Origin: Fusobacterium perfoetens ATCC 29250
GTDB taxonomy: Bacteria; Fusobacteriota; Fusobacteriia; Fusobacteriales; Fusobacteriaceae
Assembly (NCBI RefSeq): GCF_000622245.1
Contig: NZ_KK211416.1
Location: forward strand, 292,296 to 356,295
Length of the DNA: 64,000 bases
Direction of reading: 5' to 3'
The position numbers and the translations under genes are program-made. How positions within the stretch are numbered: position 1 is the first letter of the stretch; every line of letters begins with the position of its first letter. Positions 22,033 through 61,710 of the stretch are shown piece after piece. The notes below the pieces were generated by a model, which saw nothing but the letters and a program-made list of their open reading frames with translations, searched no databases and was not told the DNA's origin.

Positions 22033-22524
22033 ATGAAAACTTTAAATCATGTTAAATACATCAAAAGATGTATTGAAATAGCCAACGAATCTATGGCTAG
22101 CGGAAACCATCCTTTTGGAGCTTTAATTGTTGATAAGGAGGGAAATATAATAGTAGAATCTGGAAATATTGAAGTTACTGAAAAAGAAGCTACAGGACAT
22201 GCTGAAACTACTGCTGTTAGAAAAGCTGTAAAATTATATTCTAGAGAATTTTTATGGGATTGTACTTTATATTCTACTGCTGAACCTTGTTGTATGTGTA
22301 CTGGAGCAATTTATTGGGGAAATATTGGAAGAATAGTTTATGGAATAAGTGAAAAAAAATTATTAGAATTAACAGGTAGTGATGAAGATAATCCTACTTT
22401 TGATATGCCTTGTAGAGAAATTTTAGCAAAAGGACAAAAAAATATTGAAGTTATAGGACCAATAGCTGATGATGAATTAGCAAAAGAAATAGCAAAAGCT
22501 CACATTGGATATTGGAATAAATAA
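22033..22524 (+). CDS. Cytidine-deaminase-fold enzyme, probable guanine deaminase
   Basis: Zinc-dependent deaminase of the GuaD/TadA branch. The 163 residues show GNHPFGALIVD, the zinc/catalytic GHAETTAVR (His56, Glu58) and the PCCMC pair (Cys86, Cys89) followed by TGAIYWGNIGRIVYG. The length and the C-terminal extension ending HIGYWNK resemble B. subtilis-type guanine deaminase more than tRNA-adenosine deaminase TadA. Context supports purine use: a guanine riboswitch and a purine permease follow immediately. AGGAGGAC precedes the ATG. If correct it converts guanine to xanthine, which Xpt (40383) can salvage. Confidence 0.8.
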   Translation: MKTLNHVKYIKRCIEIANESMASGNHPFGALIVDKEGNIIVESGNIEVTEKEATGHAETTAVRKAVKLYSREFLWDCTLYSTAEPCCMCTGAIYWGNIGRIVYGISEKKLLELTGSDEDNPTFDMPCREILAKGQKNIEVIGPIADDELAKEIAKAHIGYWNK

Positions 22525-22534
22525 TTTTAAATTT

Positions 22535-22600
22535 CTCGTATAATTTTGATAATTCGGTTCAAAAGTTTCTACAGTTCTACCTAAATAGAACTACTACGAG
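22535..22600 (+). promoter_or_regulatory. Purine riboswitch aptamer, guanine class
   Basis: Classic three-helix aptamer. P1 is CTCGTA/TACGAG (22535-22540, 22595-22600). J1/2 is TATAAT-like, loop 2 has the ATNNGG pattern (AATTCGG), J2/3 is GTTTCTAC, and P3 is AGTTCT/AGAACT closing loop ACCTAAAT. The specificity base equivalent to position 74 is C (22594), which in this family means guanine/hypoxanthine rather than adenine. It begins 11 bases after the deaminase stop and controls the permease. No intrinsic terminator follows, so control may be translational. Confidence 0.92.
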
Positions 22601-22657
22601 TTGACTCAAAAAGTCCAATTCGAATTTAATAAAAAACATTAAAGGAGAAAAATTTTT

Positions 22658-58498: not shown

Positions 58499-58531
58499 AA
58501 TAGGCAGTAGAAATTTCTACTGCCTATTTAT
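58499..58531. terminator. Bidirectional terminator
   Basis: TAGGCAGTAGAAA/TTTCTACTGCCTA perfect 13-bp inverted repeat with no spacer beyond the loop bases, overlapping the stop region of the minus-strand TPR gene. Confidence 0.9.
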
Positions 58532-59600
58532 TTTTCATAACTTCATCCAATATTTCTAAAGCTTTTTTAGTATTCTCATTTGGATACTTTTTATTTGCAG
58601 TTTCATAAAAAATTTTAGATTTTTTAAAATTTCCTATTTTAGCAAAATTCCAACCTATTTCTTCATAAACCCAATTTTCATTACCACAATTTTTTGAAAG
58701 AGAATTTTCTAAAAACTTAATGGCTTCTTTATGTTTTCCAATTCTACCTAAATTCCATCCTATTTCTCCCTCTAACCAACCATCTGTATTATCTATACAA
58801 TAAGCTCTTTCCAGAAAAAAAAGTGCTTTATCATATTTTTGAATTTTTCCATAATTCCAGCCAAGTTCACAATTTAACCAAAAATCATTTCTTCCTAATT
58901 CTTTAGCTTTTATTAAATATGCTATAGCTTCTCTATACTTTTCTCTTTTTCCTAAGCACCAACTAATTTGAGAATATAACCAAGTATCTTTTCTTCCTAA
59001 TTTTTCAGCTTCTTTAAATTTTTCTATAGCCTTATCAATTTTATCTAATTTTTCATAACAAAAACCTAAATGAGATGTAAGCCACATATCTTCTTTTTTT
59101 AGAGAAAGAGCTACTTTATAATATCCTAAAGCTTCTTCATAATTGTCTAATTTTTCATAAACATACCCTATCTCTGAATTTAACCAATAGTCACATCTTC
59201 CCATCTCCTCAGATTTTTTTAAATAATAGAGAGCTTCTTGGACTTTCTCCATTCTTGATAAATTCCAACCAAGTTCTGAATTTAACCAAGAATCATCTCT
59301 TCCATATTCTCTAGCTTTTTTTAAATAATATTCAGCTAATTTATATTTTCCTAATCCTCCATAATTCCAACCAAGTTCACAACATAACCACCCATTTTCA
59401 TCATATTCCTCAAAACTTTCTGCTTTTTTTAAATATGTGATAGCCTTTTCTCTTTCATTAGTTCTCCCTAATAACCAACCTATATTACAATAAAGCCAAT
59501 AACTATTTTCTCCTTTCTCTTCATACTCTAATAGGACTTTTAAAGCTGCTTTATATTCTTTTATTTTTATTAATTCTTCTATCATCTTTTTATTATCCAT
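58524..59600 (-). CDS. Tetratricopeptide-repeat protein with nine WL-x3-(E/H)-(L/I)-GW units
   Basis: Helical repeat scaffold, function unknown. After a short N-terminus, nine tandem units with a 34-residue period run to the end: each has a tryptophan motif (for example DSWLNSELGWN, DFWLNCELGWN, DGWLEGEIGWN), then an LxxYxEAIxYLxKAxELGR helix pair. The Trp-rich consensus is stricter than in ordinary TPRs. No signal peptide or membrane helix, so it is cytosolic. The gene is single, with the preQ1 riboswitch promoter divergently placed behind it. Confidence 0.85.
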   Translation of the reverse strand: MDNKKMIEELIKIKEYKAALKVLLEYEEKGENSYWLYCNIGWLLGRTNEREKAITYLKKAESFEEYDENGWLCCELGWNYGGLGKYKLAEYYLKKAREYGRDDSWLNSELGWNLSRMEKVQEALYYLKKSEEMGRCDYWLNSEIGYVYEKLDNYEEALGYYKVALSLKKEDMWLTSHLGFCYEKLDKIDKAIEKFKEAEKLGRKDTWLYSQISWCLGKREKYREAIAYLIKAKELGRNDFWLNCELGWNYGKIQKYDKALFFLERAYCIDNTDGWLEGEIGWNLGRIGKHKEAIKFLENSLSKNCGNENWVYEEIGWNFAKIGNFKKSKIFYETANKKYPNENTKKALEILDEVMKNK

Positions 59601-59669: not shown

Positions 59670-59698
59670 TTGACAATTTTTTAAAAAAAAGTTATACT
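59670..59698 (+). promoter_or_regulatory. Promoter of the preQ1 riboswitch operon
   Basis: TTGACA, an exact 17-base spacer and TATACT, giving an RNA start about 35 bases before the aptamer. Confidence 0.8.
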
Positions 59699-59737
59699 AT
59701 TTTTTGTCAAAATTATAAAATTCCTACTTTGTTAGGG

Positions 59738-59776
59738 AGATGTTCTGCACAGATAAACCATCTATAAAAAACTAGG
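59738..59776 (+). promoter_or_regulatory. PreQ1 riboswitch, class I
   Basis: P1 is AGATG (59738-59742) with CATCT (59759-59763); the loop opens with the conserved TTC and the 3' tail is ATAAAAAACTAG, the class I pseudoknot tail. The minimal size and tail are diagnostic. A terminator lies between it and the radical SAM gene, so it likely switches transcription. It governs a queuosine-precursor transporter, in agreement with the ligand. Confidence 0.88.
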
Positions 59777-59819
59777 TCTTTTTTTATTACTTAAAAATAA
59801 AAATGATTTTATAGTGGTT

Positions 59820-59848
59820 AGAGTAGAACTATTCTACTCTTTTTATTT
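59820..59848 (+). terminator. Riboswitch-associated terminator
   Basis: AGAGTAGAA/TTCTACTCT, 3-base loop and a T-rich run, between the preQ1 aptamer and the start codon. Confidence 0.85.
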
Positions 59849-59870
59849 TATAAAATTTTAGGAGGTTATT

Positions 59871-60575
59871 TTGGGTATTAGATACAACAAAATCAATGAC
59901 AAACATCAAAGAGAAATAGTACTCTTAAAAAGTTTTCCATGTAAATATGGAAAATGTAGTTTCTGTAATTATATTGAAGATAATTCTACAGATGAAAATT
60001 TAATTAATAAAACTAATAAAAAAGTTTTAGAAAATATTACAGGTGAATATGGAGTTTTGGAAGTTATAAACTCTGGCTCTGTATTTGAATTACCTGATGA
60101 CACTTTGAAAGAAATAAAAAGAGTTGTAAAAGAAAAAAATATTCATACTCTCTATTTTGAAATTTATTATGGTTATATAAATTTACTTTCTAAAATAAGA
60201 GAATATTTTTCTGGAATAGAAATAAGATTTAGAATGGGATTAGAAACTTTTGATGATAATTTTAGAAAAAATATTTATAATAAAAATTTTTCTTTAAATG
60301 AAGAAATTTTAAAAAAATTAAGTACTGAACTTTATTCTGTCTGCCTTTTAGTTTGTACTAAAGGACAAACTAAAGAGATGATTGATAATGATATTGAATT
60401 AGGTTTAAAATATTTTAAAAATATAACCATAAATATATTTATTGATAATGGAACTGTAGTAAAAAGAGATGATGAACTTGTTAAATGGTTTGTCAAAAAA
60501 TATTCTTATTTAACTGATGATGATAGAGTAGAACTTTTAATCGATAACAAAGATTTAGGTGTTTTTGAACAATAA
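59871..60575 (+). CDS. Small radical SAM protein in a preQ1-controlled operon (possible queuine lyase)
   Basis: 234-residue radical SAM enzyme. The cluster cysteines are Cys24, Cys29 and Cys32 (FPCKYGKCSFCNY), spaced CX4CX2C rather than the usual CX3CX2C. A partial barrel follows, with INSGSVFELPD, IHTLYFEIYYG, IRFRMGLETFDDNFRK, and VCLLVCTKGQ. The start is TTG with AGGAGG upstream. Because a preQ1 riboswitch precedes it and a queuosine-precursor transporter follows by 18 bases, a role in queuine or preQ1 salvage is likely. QueL of Clostridioides difficile is a radical SAM lyase that releases preQ1 from queuine; this could be its equivalent, but homology was not tested. Confidence 0.7.
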   Translation: MGIRYNKINDKHQREIVLLKSFPCKYGKCSFCNYIEDNSTDENLINKTNKKVLENITGEYGVLEVINSGSVFELPDDTLKEIKRVVKEKNIHTLYFEIYYGYINLLSKIREYFSGIEIRFRMGLETFDDNFRKNIYNKNFSLNEEILKKLSTELYSVCLLVCTKGQTKEMIDNDIELGLKYFKNITINIFIDNGTVVKRDDELVKWFVKKYSYLTDDDRVELLIDNKDLGVFEQ

Positions 60576-60593
60576 AAATTACTAGGAGGATAT

Positions 60594-61292
60594 ATGAGAA
60601 ACGAACTACTTTGGGCATTGATGTTAATTGTAAATTTTTTAAGTATAATATTTATTTATAAAAAATTTGGAAAAATTGGACTTTATTCTTGGATTCCAGT
60701 TTCTACAATTTTAGCTAATATTCAAGTTGTTTTATTAGTTAGATTATTTGGTTTTAGTACTACTTTAGGAAATATTTTATATGCAGGAGGTTTTTTAGTT
60801 ACAGATATATTAGCTGAAAATTATGGAAAAAAATCTGCTCAAAAAGCTGTTCAAATTGGATTTTTTTCTTTAATAGTTACTAGTATAATAATGAAAATAG
60901 CTGTTTTATTTGTTCCTCTTGAGGAGGGAATTGTTATGTTTGAAAGTGTAAAACAAATATTTGATTTTATGCCAAGACTTATGATTGCTTCCCTTCTTGC
61001 TTATTTTATTTCTCAAAGTCATGATATTTGGGCTTATGAATTTTGGAAGAAAAAATATTCTTCTACAAAACATATTTGGATAAGAAATAATGCAAGCACT
61101 TTAGTTAGCCAATTTATTGATAATCTAGTTTTTACTATAGTTGCTTTTTATGGAGTTTATCCTTTTGAAGTATTAAAAGAAATATTTATAGCCACATATG
61201 TTATTAAATTTATTGTTGCTATATCTGACACTCCTTTTGTTTACATAGCTCATTATTTAAAAAGAAACAATTTAGTAGAGGAAGAAATTTAA
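60594..61292 (+). CDS. Queuosine precursor transporter (YhhQ/VUT family)
   Basis: Membrane importer for 7-deazaguanine bases such as preQ1 or queuine. The 232 residues contain about six helices and the family's signatures FLVTDILAENYGKKSAQKAVQIGF and IRNNASTLVSQFIDNLVFTIVAFYG, followed by the SDTPFVYIAHYL end. AGGAGG precedes the ATG. Its placement behind a preQ1 riboswitch and a radical SAM gene fixes the likely substrate class. E. coli YhhQ (QueV/QPTR) carries preQ0 and preQ1; which base is used here is unknown. Confidence 0.9.
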   Translation: MRNELLWALMLIVNFLSIIFIYKKFGKIGLYSWIPVSTILANIQVVLLVRLFGFSTTLGNILYAGGFLVTDILAENYGKKSAQKAVQIGFFSLIVTSIIMKIAVLFVPLEEGIVMFESVKQIFDFMPRLMIASLLAYFISQSHDIWAYEFWKKKYSSTKHIWIRNNASTLVSQFIDNLVFTIVAFYGVYPFEVLKEIFIATYVIKFIVAISDTPFVYIAHYLKRNNLVEEEI

Positions 61293-61368: not shown

Positions 61369-61710
61369 TTATGCAATTTTTCTATTTAAATATCGTTGAC
61401 ATTGTTTTTCTGTATTATATCCTAATAAAACTCCAAGTATAAAATCTTCTTCAGGAGATAAATGAGATAAAGAAGATTTATTAAAACTTTTTACTACTTT
61501 TATTGAGTCTCTATTTCCAAAATATACATTAATCATTTTTTCATTTAAGTATTCTATCATATAGTCATAACCACACTCTTCTAACTTTTCTCTAATAACT
61601 TCTTCGTTATCATAAGAAGTGGTAAGAAGAGATAATATTCTAACACCTTTATCTAGTTCATAAATCATGTGTATAAAAACATCTAATTCTCTTCTTTTTT
61701 CTATACTCAT
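61369..61710 (-). CDS. DUF2023 family protein
   Basis: 113-residue conserved protein of unknown function. It matches what I recall of the DUF2023 family: FIHMIYELDKGVRILSLLT at the start, INVYFGNRDSIKVVKSF in the middle, and the diagnostic EEDFILGVLLGYNTEKQCQRYLNR end. It lies 2 bases after the flavodoxin stop. DUF2023 genes are commonly seen beside flavodoxin genes, so a role in maturing or regulating that flavodoxin is likely, but none is established. Confidence 0.85.
   Translation of the reverse strand: MSIEKRRELDVFIHMIYELDKGVRILSLLTTSYDNEEVIREKLEECGYDYMIEYLNEKMINVYFGNRDSIKVVKSFNKSSLSHLSPEEDFILGVLLGYNTEKQCQRYLNRKIA

What the first reader, a model, noticed from the sequence alone, without database searches (positions are those of the whole stretch)
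59670..61292. PreQ1-controlled queuosine salvage operon: small radical SAM protein plus YhhQ-type transporter
A class I preQ1 aptamer and a terminator precede a 234-residue radical SAM protein with CX4CX2C spacing and a queuosine-precursor transporter. Queuine lyase (QueL) of Clostridioides difficile is a radical SAM enzyme that makes preQ1 from queuine. This operon may be a fusobacterial version that imports queuine and regenerates preQ1. The atypical cysteine spacing and small size make its chemistry interesting.
Basis: partly seen in the sequence, partly recalled or inferred. Interest (0 to 1): 0.72.

Follow-up and report, generated by a model that had tools for sequence, protein, structure and literature searches.

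The report
Queuine salvage operon in a fusobacterium
Two neighbouring bacterial genes, switched by a small RNA sensor, very probably import the micronutrient queuine and cut it back to a tRNA-modification precursor with an already known enzyme (queuine lyase), in a species that cannot make the precursor itself; a good example of a known pathway, not a new one.

Summary
Window 59670-61292 holds a promoter, a class-I preQ1 riboswitch with a terminator, a 234-residue radical SAM protein and a YhhQ/QPTR transporter. The radical SAM protein is a queuine lyase (QueL). Its only PDB sequence match is 6P78, [quoted passage not shown] (E 1.7e-61), and its AlphaFold2 model superposes on that entry with TM 0.92. 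The CX4CX2C motif is not atypical: 6P78 has the same spacing. The host genome lacks QueC, QueF, QueK-family hydrolases and QueT. It has QueA, QueH and a TGT with the residues of preQ1-type enzymes, so QueL is its only known-family source of internally made preQ1. In 61 Fusobacteriales genomes QueL occurs in 45, always with YhhQ in the genome, and mostly where QueC is missing. Not shown: catalysis, and whether this YhhQ carries queuine, preQ1 or both. Verdict: new member of a known kind, low to moderate interest. A side observation outside the window is more novel: Fusobacteriota with QueC but no QueF carry, in the que operon, a double-cubane/HgdB-like reductase with its ATPase, a candidate alternative preQ0 reductase.

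The parts
59670..59698 (+). sigma-70-type promoter TTGACA-N17-TATACT
   Evidence: 11 of 12 consensus matches, best in the region; a consensus match only
59733..59781 (+). class-I preQ1 riboswitch aptamer (P1 59738-59742 / 59759-59763, then the tail AUAAAAAACUAGG)
   Evidence: RF00522 22.7 bits, below the gathering score; orthologous leaders with covarying P1, some over the gathering score
59742..59748 (+). aptamer loop strand GUUCUGC, proposed antiterminator strand, complementary to 59823-59829 GUAGAAC
   Evidence: 7 pairs (one G-U); over 16 leaders own duplex energy -8.2 against -6.8 +/- 0.49 kcal/mol for swapped partners, 0.4% of swaps as good; for this leader alone p = 0.07
59820..59840 (+). 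intrinsic terminator hairpin AGAGTAGAA-CTA-TTCTACTCT followed by TTTTTATTTT
59860..59865 (+). Shine-Dalgarno AGGAGG of queL
   Evidence: sequence
59871..60575 (+). queL: radical SAM queuine lyase, 234 aa, TTG start, CX4CX2C at residues 24/29/32
   Evidence: PF04055 over cut-off; 6P78 queuine lyase E 1.7e-61; AF2 model TM 0.92 to 6P78
60584..60589 (+). Shine-Dalgarno AGGAGG of the transporter gene; 18-base intergenic gap after the queL stop codon
   Evidence: sequence
60594..61292 (+). YhhQ/QPTR queuosine-precursor transporter, 232 aa
   Evidence: TIGR00697 212.8 bits and PF02592 163.7 bits, both over cut-off; only copy in the genome
61322..61369 (.). terminator hairpin between the operon and the convergent gene 61369-61710 (-); T-rich on both sides
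   Evidence: called on the - strand; the + strand reads into TTTTTTATTAT

Best explanation
A preQ1-regulated queuine salvage operon. YhhQ brings queuine (and perhaps also preQ1) into the cell. QueL, a radical SAM enzyme with a [4Fe-4S] cluster on Cys24/29/32, uses SAM to break the bond between the cyclopentenediol side chain and the aminomethyl nitrogen of queuine and releases preQ1. The cell's ordinary bacterial TGT inserts preQ1 into tRNA, and QueA and QueH rebuild queuosine. When preQ1 is plentiful it binds the leader aptamer; this holds the loop strand GUUCUGC in the pseudoknot, so it cannot pair with the 5' arm of the terminator, and transcription of queL-yhhQ stops. Shown by sequence: the parts, QueL homology and predicted fold, presence and absence of pathway genes, conservation of the leader. 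Inferred: the reaction (from 6P78), the cargo of YhhQ, the direction of the switch.
For: QueL identity: only PDB sequence match is 6P78, E 1.7e-61, same CX4CX2C; AF2 model pLDDT 89.5, TM 0.92/0.94, rmsd 1.7 A, 48% identity to 6P78 'bound to SAM and queuine', next hit E 1.8e-4. Host genome (completeness 99.97%): no true QueC, no QueF, no QueK-family hydrolase PF01156, no QueT; one TGT, QueA 453 bits, QueH 229 bits, one YhhQ, the window's. TGT keeps FDEC and GGLAVGE, i.e. Cys158 and Val233, the residues linked to preQ1 rather than queuine use (PMC3660597), so queuine must first be turned into preQ1. Distribution: QueL in 45 of 61 genomes; all 45 have YhhQ, and none of the 6 genomes without YhhQ has QueL (Fisher p 1.4e-4); QueL anti-correlates with QueC (8 of 18 against 37 of 43, p 0.003) (genomes are related, so p values are only a guide). 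queL and yhhQ are close neighbours in 25 of 30 loci. Leader: covarying P1 and a terminator in orthologous positions, aptamer loop co-varies with the terminator arm.
Against: No enzyme assay. QueL also occurs in 8 genomes with a true QueC, 4 of which have QueF too, so it is not only a substitute for synthesis. Six genomes have YhhQ, TGT with Val233, QueA and QueH but neither QueL nor QueC, so fusobacterial YhhQ can apparently supply preQ1 directly. The window's own aptamer is under Rfam's threshold. In static folding of the full leader the terminator forms in both states, so the switch must be kinetic if the model holds. For the window's leader alone the antiterminator is not better than chance at 5% (p 0.07).
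Confidence: 0.9

Rival explanations
1. The transporter is a preQ1 (or preQ0) importer as in E. coli, and QueL serves recycling: it cleaves queuine released inside the cell from turned-over tRNA rather than imported queuine.
For: Six relatives keep YhhQ, a TGT with Val233, QueA and QueH without QueL or QueC, which fits preQ1 import by YhhQ. In G022, G026 and G032 a PF01156 hydrolase (QueK-like) gene lies about 250 bases before a second-type YhhQ.
Against: The host genome has no PF01156 hydrolase to free queuine from queuosine and no other known-family importer such as QueT. QueL never occurs without YhhQ in 61 genomes and is mostly next to it.
Confidence: 0.2
2. The radical SAM protein acts on another 7-deazaguanine compound, for example it is a bacterial relative of archaeosine enzyme RaSEA or makes a different cut.
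For: TIGR01210 (RaSEA) is the best named family by HMM, 41.5 bits, E 9.3e-11.
Against: The RaSEA score is far below the cut-off of 212 bits. Similarity to 6P78 is far stronger (210.9 bits over residues 4-231) and the whole fold matches.
Confidence: 0.04
3. The leader is not a working preQ1 riboswitch but a decayed one, and the operon is constitutive.
For: 22.7 bits against the gathering score of 39; shuffle p 0.07 for the antiterminator in this leader.
Against: P1, the AUAAAAAACUAGG tail and the terminator are kept across genera; the longer loop is shared by most leaders of the same genus (L002, L004, L006, L007, L009).
Confidence: 0.06

Closest known systems
QueL, queuine lyase (PDB 6P78, Clostridium spiroforme; function in Clostridioides difficile, Yuan et al. 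2019, read here only through PMC7694415 and PMC11130926)
   Same: whole fold (TM 0.92), CX4CX2C spacing, length, about 50% identity, conserved residues along the chain
   Different: fusobacterial sequence; encoded next to a YhhQ transporter; host has no PF01156 (QueK-like) nucleosidase and no QueT
YhhQ / QPTR / COG1738 queuosine-precursor transporters
   Same: TIGR00697 and PF02592 over cut-off
   Different: cargo unknown; poor match to the model of the preQ0/preQ1-type YhhQ (PRK11212, 53.8 bits, cut-off 252)
Class-I preQ1 riboswitch RF00522, including the Fusobacterium nucleatum (Fnu) aptamer used in NMR studies (PMC3905878)
   Same: P1, AUAAAAAACUA tail, downstream terminator
   Different: longer loop (UUCUGCACAGAUAAAC), score below Rfam's threshold

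Membership tests
QueL (queuine lyase) | sequence homology to the characterised enzyme over the full length | tested here: met
   6P78 E 1.7e-61, residues 4-231
QueL (queuine lyase) | radical SAM fold with CX4CX2C cluster motif as in 6P78 | tested here: met
QueL (queuine lyase) | genome context of q salvage: no QueC/QueF, bacterial TGT, QueA and QueG or QueH present | tested here: met
   TGT specificity residues
QueL (queuine lyase) | SAM-dependent release of preQ1 from queuine | not testable with these tools
   needs an anaerobic assay
YhhQ/QPTR transporter | TIGR00697 / PF02592 membership | tested here: met
YhhQ/QPTR transporter | transport of queuine | not testable with these tools
   by elimination only
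class-I preQ1 riboswitch RF00522 | score at or above the Rfam gathering score | tested here: not met
   22.7 of 39 bits
class-I preQ1 riboswitch RF00522 | P1 pairing kept by compensatory change in orthologous leaders; A-rich tail ending in CUA | tested here: met
class-I preQ1 riboswitch RF00522 | ligand-dependent termination | not testable with these tools
   complementarity of aptamer loop and terminator arm only
RaSEA (archaeosine radical SAM enzyme) | score over the TIGR01210 cut-off | tested here: not met
   41.5 of 212 bits

The most novel reading that the evidence does not exclude
In Fusobacteriota the supply of preQ1 is a swappable module. The queL-yhhQ operon of the window is one known form and queF a second. 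A third, undescribed form (outside this window) would be an ATP-driven iron-sulfur reductase of the double-cubane/2-hydroxyacyl-CoA dehydratase family with its activase, encoded in one operon with queD, queE, folE and queC, that reduces the nitrile of preQ0 to preQ1 in place of QueF.
Probability: 0.5. Interest if true: 0.7.

Novelty: new member of a known kind. Interest (0 to 1): 0.27.

Why it matters
Queuine is a micronutrient that animals need and gut bacteria compete for. A tight queL-yhhQ unit under a preQ1 riboswitch, in most Fusobacteriales that cannot make preQ1, says that these bacteria, some of them gut and oral residents, probably take finished queuine from their surroundings. It also points to a concrete test of which YhhQ proteins carry queuine. 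The pathway itself has been known since 2019, so the window adds a clear case and distribution data, not a new mechanism.

Tried and rejected
Direct queuine insertion by TGT (Chlamydia type): rejected for the host, because TGT keeps Cys158 and Val233 equivalents and QueA and QueH are present. The same idea for the six genomes without QueL or QueC: they also keep QueA, QueH and Val233, so rejected; the Cys158 motif was not found there by my pattern and was not followed up. RaSEA membership: rejected on score. A conserved hairpin just before P1, seen in some leaders: present in only part of them, left open. Static folding of the leader to show the switch: terminator forms in both states, inconclusive. 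MAFFT misaligned the short aptamers, so covariation was read by eye rather than counted. Yuan et al. 2019 is not in the paper library. Search of phage records with the operon: nothing. A Clostridia-wide search for the alternative reductase could not be centred outside the host's relatives; in plasmids it is found only in Ilyobacter. QueD and QueE were not searched for in the host genome; absence of QueC and QueF was taken as enough.

Full report
OBSERVATION. The stretch 59670-61292 reads, on the + strand, as a promoter (TTGACA-N17-TATACT, 59670-59698), a leader, a 234-codon gene with TTG start (59871-60575) and, 18 bases after its stop codon, a 232-codon gene (60594-61292), each behind AGGAGG. 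Rfam finds a class-I preQ1 aptamer at 59733-59781, at 22.7 bits, below the gathering score of 39. A terminator hairpin with a T tract lies at 59820-59840. The window comes from a Fusobacterium-like genome of 2.1 Mb, 99.97% complete (its nearest named relatives are Fusobacterium and Cetobacterium).

THE LEADER IS A REAL RIBOSWITCH BY COMPARISON. Upstream of queL (or of a solitary yhhQ) in other Fusobacteriaceae the same element recurs: P1, a loop beginning mostly GUUC or GUGC, the other side of P1, an A-rich tail ending in ACUAG, then a terminator. P1 is AGATG/CATCT in most, ACAGG/CCTGT in L021 and GACAG/CTGTC in L052 and L062: changes that keep pairing. In G007, G009 and G010 the aptamer just before queL reaches Rfam's own threshold. 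The aptamer loop strand can pair with the 5' arm of the terminator (window: GUUCUGC 59742-59748 with GUAGAAC 59823-59829). Over 16 leaders the own pairing is stronger than pairings with other leaders' terminators (-8.2 against -6.8 +/- 0.49 kcal/mol, 0.4% of 500 swaps as good; related sequences are not independent). This is the anatomy of a transcription OFF switch: ligand holds the loop strand, the terminator forms. It remains inference. In static folds of the full leader the terminator wins with or without the aptamer, and for this leader alone the pairing is not significant (p 0.07).

THE ENZYME IS QUEUINE LYASE. Pfam gives only Radical_SAM over cut-off (31.3 bits). NCBIfam's nearest is RaSEA, far below cut-off. 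Against all PDB sequences there is one match: 6P78, queuine lyase, E 1.7e-61, covering residues 4-231. An AlphaFold2 model from 12 homologues (pLDDT 89.5) matches 6P78, 'queuine lyase from Clostridium spiroforme bound to SAM and queuine', at TM 0.92/0.94, 1.7 A, 48% identity; the next structure has E 1.8e-4. The CX4CX2C motif is the same in 6P78 and in clostridial relatives.

THE GENOME FITS SALVAGE. In the host genome there is no QueF match, and the only QueC matches (at most 35.6 bits) are of the kind most genomes show for related ATPases, against 195-289 bits for true QueC. TGT (one copy), QueA and QueH are present. TGT keeps Cys158 and Val233 equivalents, the residues tied to preQ1 use and against queuine use (PMC3660597). 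So queuine cannot simply be inserted; it has to be cut to preQ1 first, which is what QueL does. No PF01156 nucleoside hydrolase (that QueK belongs to this family is from my own knowledge) and no QueT were found, so YhhQ is the only known-family route for queuine into the cell.

DISTRIBUTION. Of 61 genomes, 45 have QueL, 55 YhhQ, 18 a true QueC. Every QueL genome has YhhQ; QueL is rarer where QueC is present (8 of 18 against 37 of 43). In 25 of 30 loci queL and yhhQ are close neighbours, with queL first in most Fusobacteriaceae and yhhQ first in genus g12 and in the second large family f4. Six genomes have YhhQ, TGT, QueA and QueH but neither QueL nor QueC; their TGT also has Val233, so their YhhQ presumably brings in preQ1. 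This leaves the cargo of the window's YhhQ open between queuine and both.

COMPARISON WITH WHAT IS KNOWN. QueL and the queuine-to-preQ1 route are described (Yuan et al. 2019, not held here; summarised in PMC7694415 and PMC11130926). PMC11130926 already lists Fusobacterium and Leptotrichia as Q-precursor consumers and maps QueK/QueL in gut species. Class-I preQ1 riboswitches of Fusobacterium nucleatum have been studied (PMC3905878). The window adds a well-conserved operon of known parts. It is a new member of a known kind.

SIDE OBSERVATION, OUTSIDE THE WINDOW. Eighteen of the 61 genomes have a true QueC. Eight have QueF; nine others have instead a protein of about 330 residues of the HGD-D/double-cubane family (PF06050 127.7 bits, over cut-off; NF040772 double_cubane 53.5 bits, below its cut-off of 350), and one (G012) has neither; none has both (Fisher p 4e-4, relatedness not corrected). 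It is followed by an acyl-CoA dehydratase activase (TIGR00241 over cut-off) and, in eight of the nine, by queD, queE, usually folE, and queC (Ilyobacter polytropus pILYOP01 and others); in the fragmented genome G037 the pair and the queC start lie on one short contig. In two QueF genomes looked at, the order is queD-queE-folE-queC-queF. In G014, G019 and G030 there is no QueF, QueL or YhhQ, yet TGT, QueA and QueH are present, so something must make preQ1. An ATP-driven Fe-S reductase acting on the nitrile of preQ0 is the simplest guess. No paper in the library joins the two subjects. This was not tested further.

Noticed in passing
L094:4052-8207, L095, L096, L097, L098, L101, L105 (Ilyobacter polytropus pILYOP01), L108, L109: Fusobacteriota with QueC but no QueF carry in the que operon an HGD-D/double-cubane-type protein plus acyl-CoA dehydratase activase; QueF and this pair never co-occur (8 against 9 of 18 QueC genomes). 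Candidate non-orthologous, ATP-dependent preQ0 reductase.
   Followed up: partly
G024 (L106:462-2203) and G019 (L111:5924-7072): A reductase-activase pair stands without que genes beside it next to groES/groEL-like genes in the 70% complete genome G024; G019 has a second, 95% identical reductase with only a fragment of the activase matched.
   Followed up: no
G022:C3, G026:C14 (L044), G032:C50, G031:C56 (L073): A second type of YhhQ gene lies about 250 bases after a PF01156 nucleoside hydrolase (QueK-like), in G031 behind its own preQ1 aptamer; probable queuosine nucleoside salvage unit separate from queL.
   Followed up: partly
G025:C1:165212-165921 (L050): queL is split into two separate pieces, so it is frameshifted, interrupted or mis-sequenced in that genome.
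   Followed up: no
upstream of P1 in L001, L005, L007, L014, L020, L035: A short hairpin of differing sequence sits immediately before the aptamer in about half of the leaders; possible extra stacking helix.
   Followed up: partly
window 22516-22616 (+): Purine riboswitch, 71 bits (RF00167).
   Followed up: no
window 58524-59600 (-): 358-residue protein made of repeated motifs (ELGWNYG...) that look like TPR-type repeats, divergently oriented to the queL operon.
   Followed up: no
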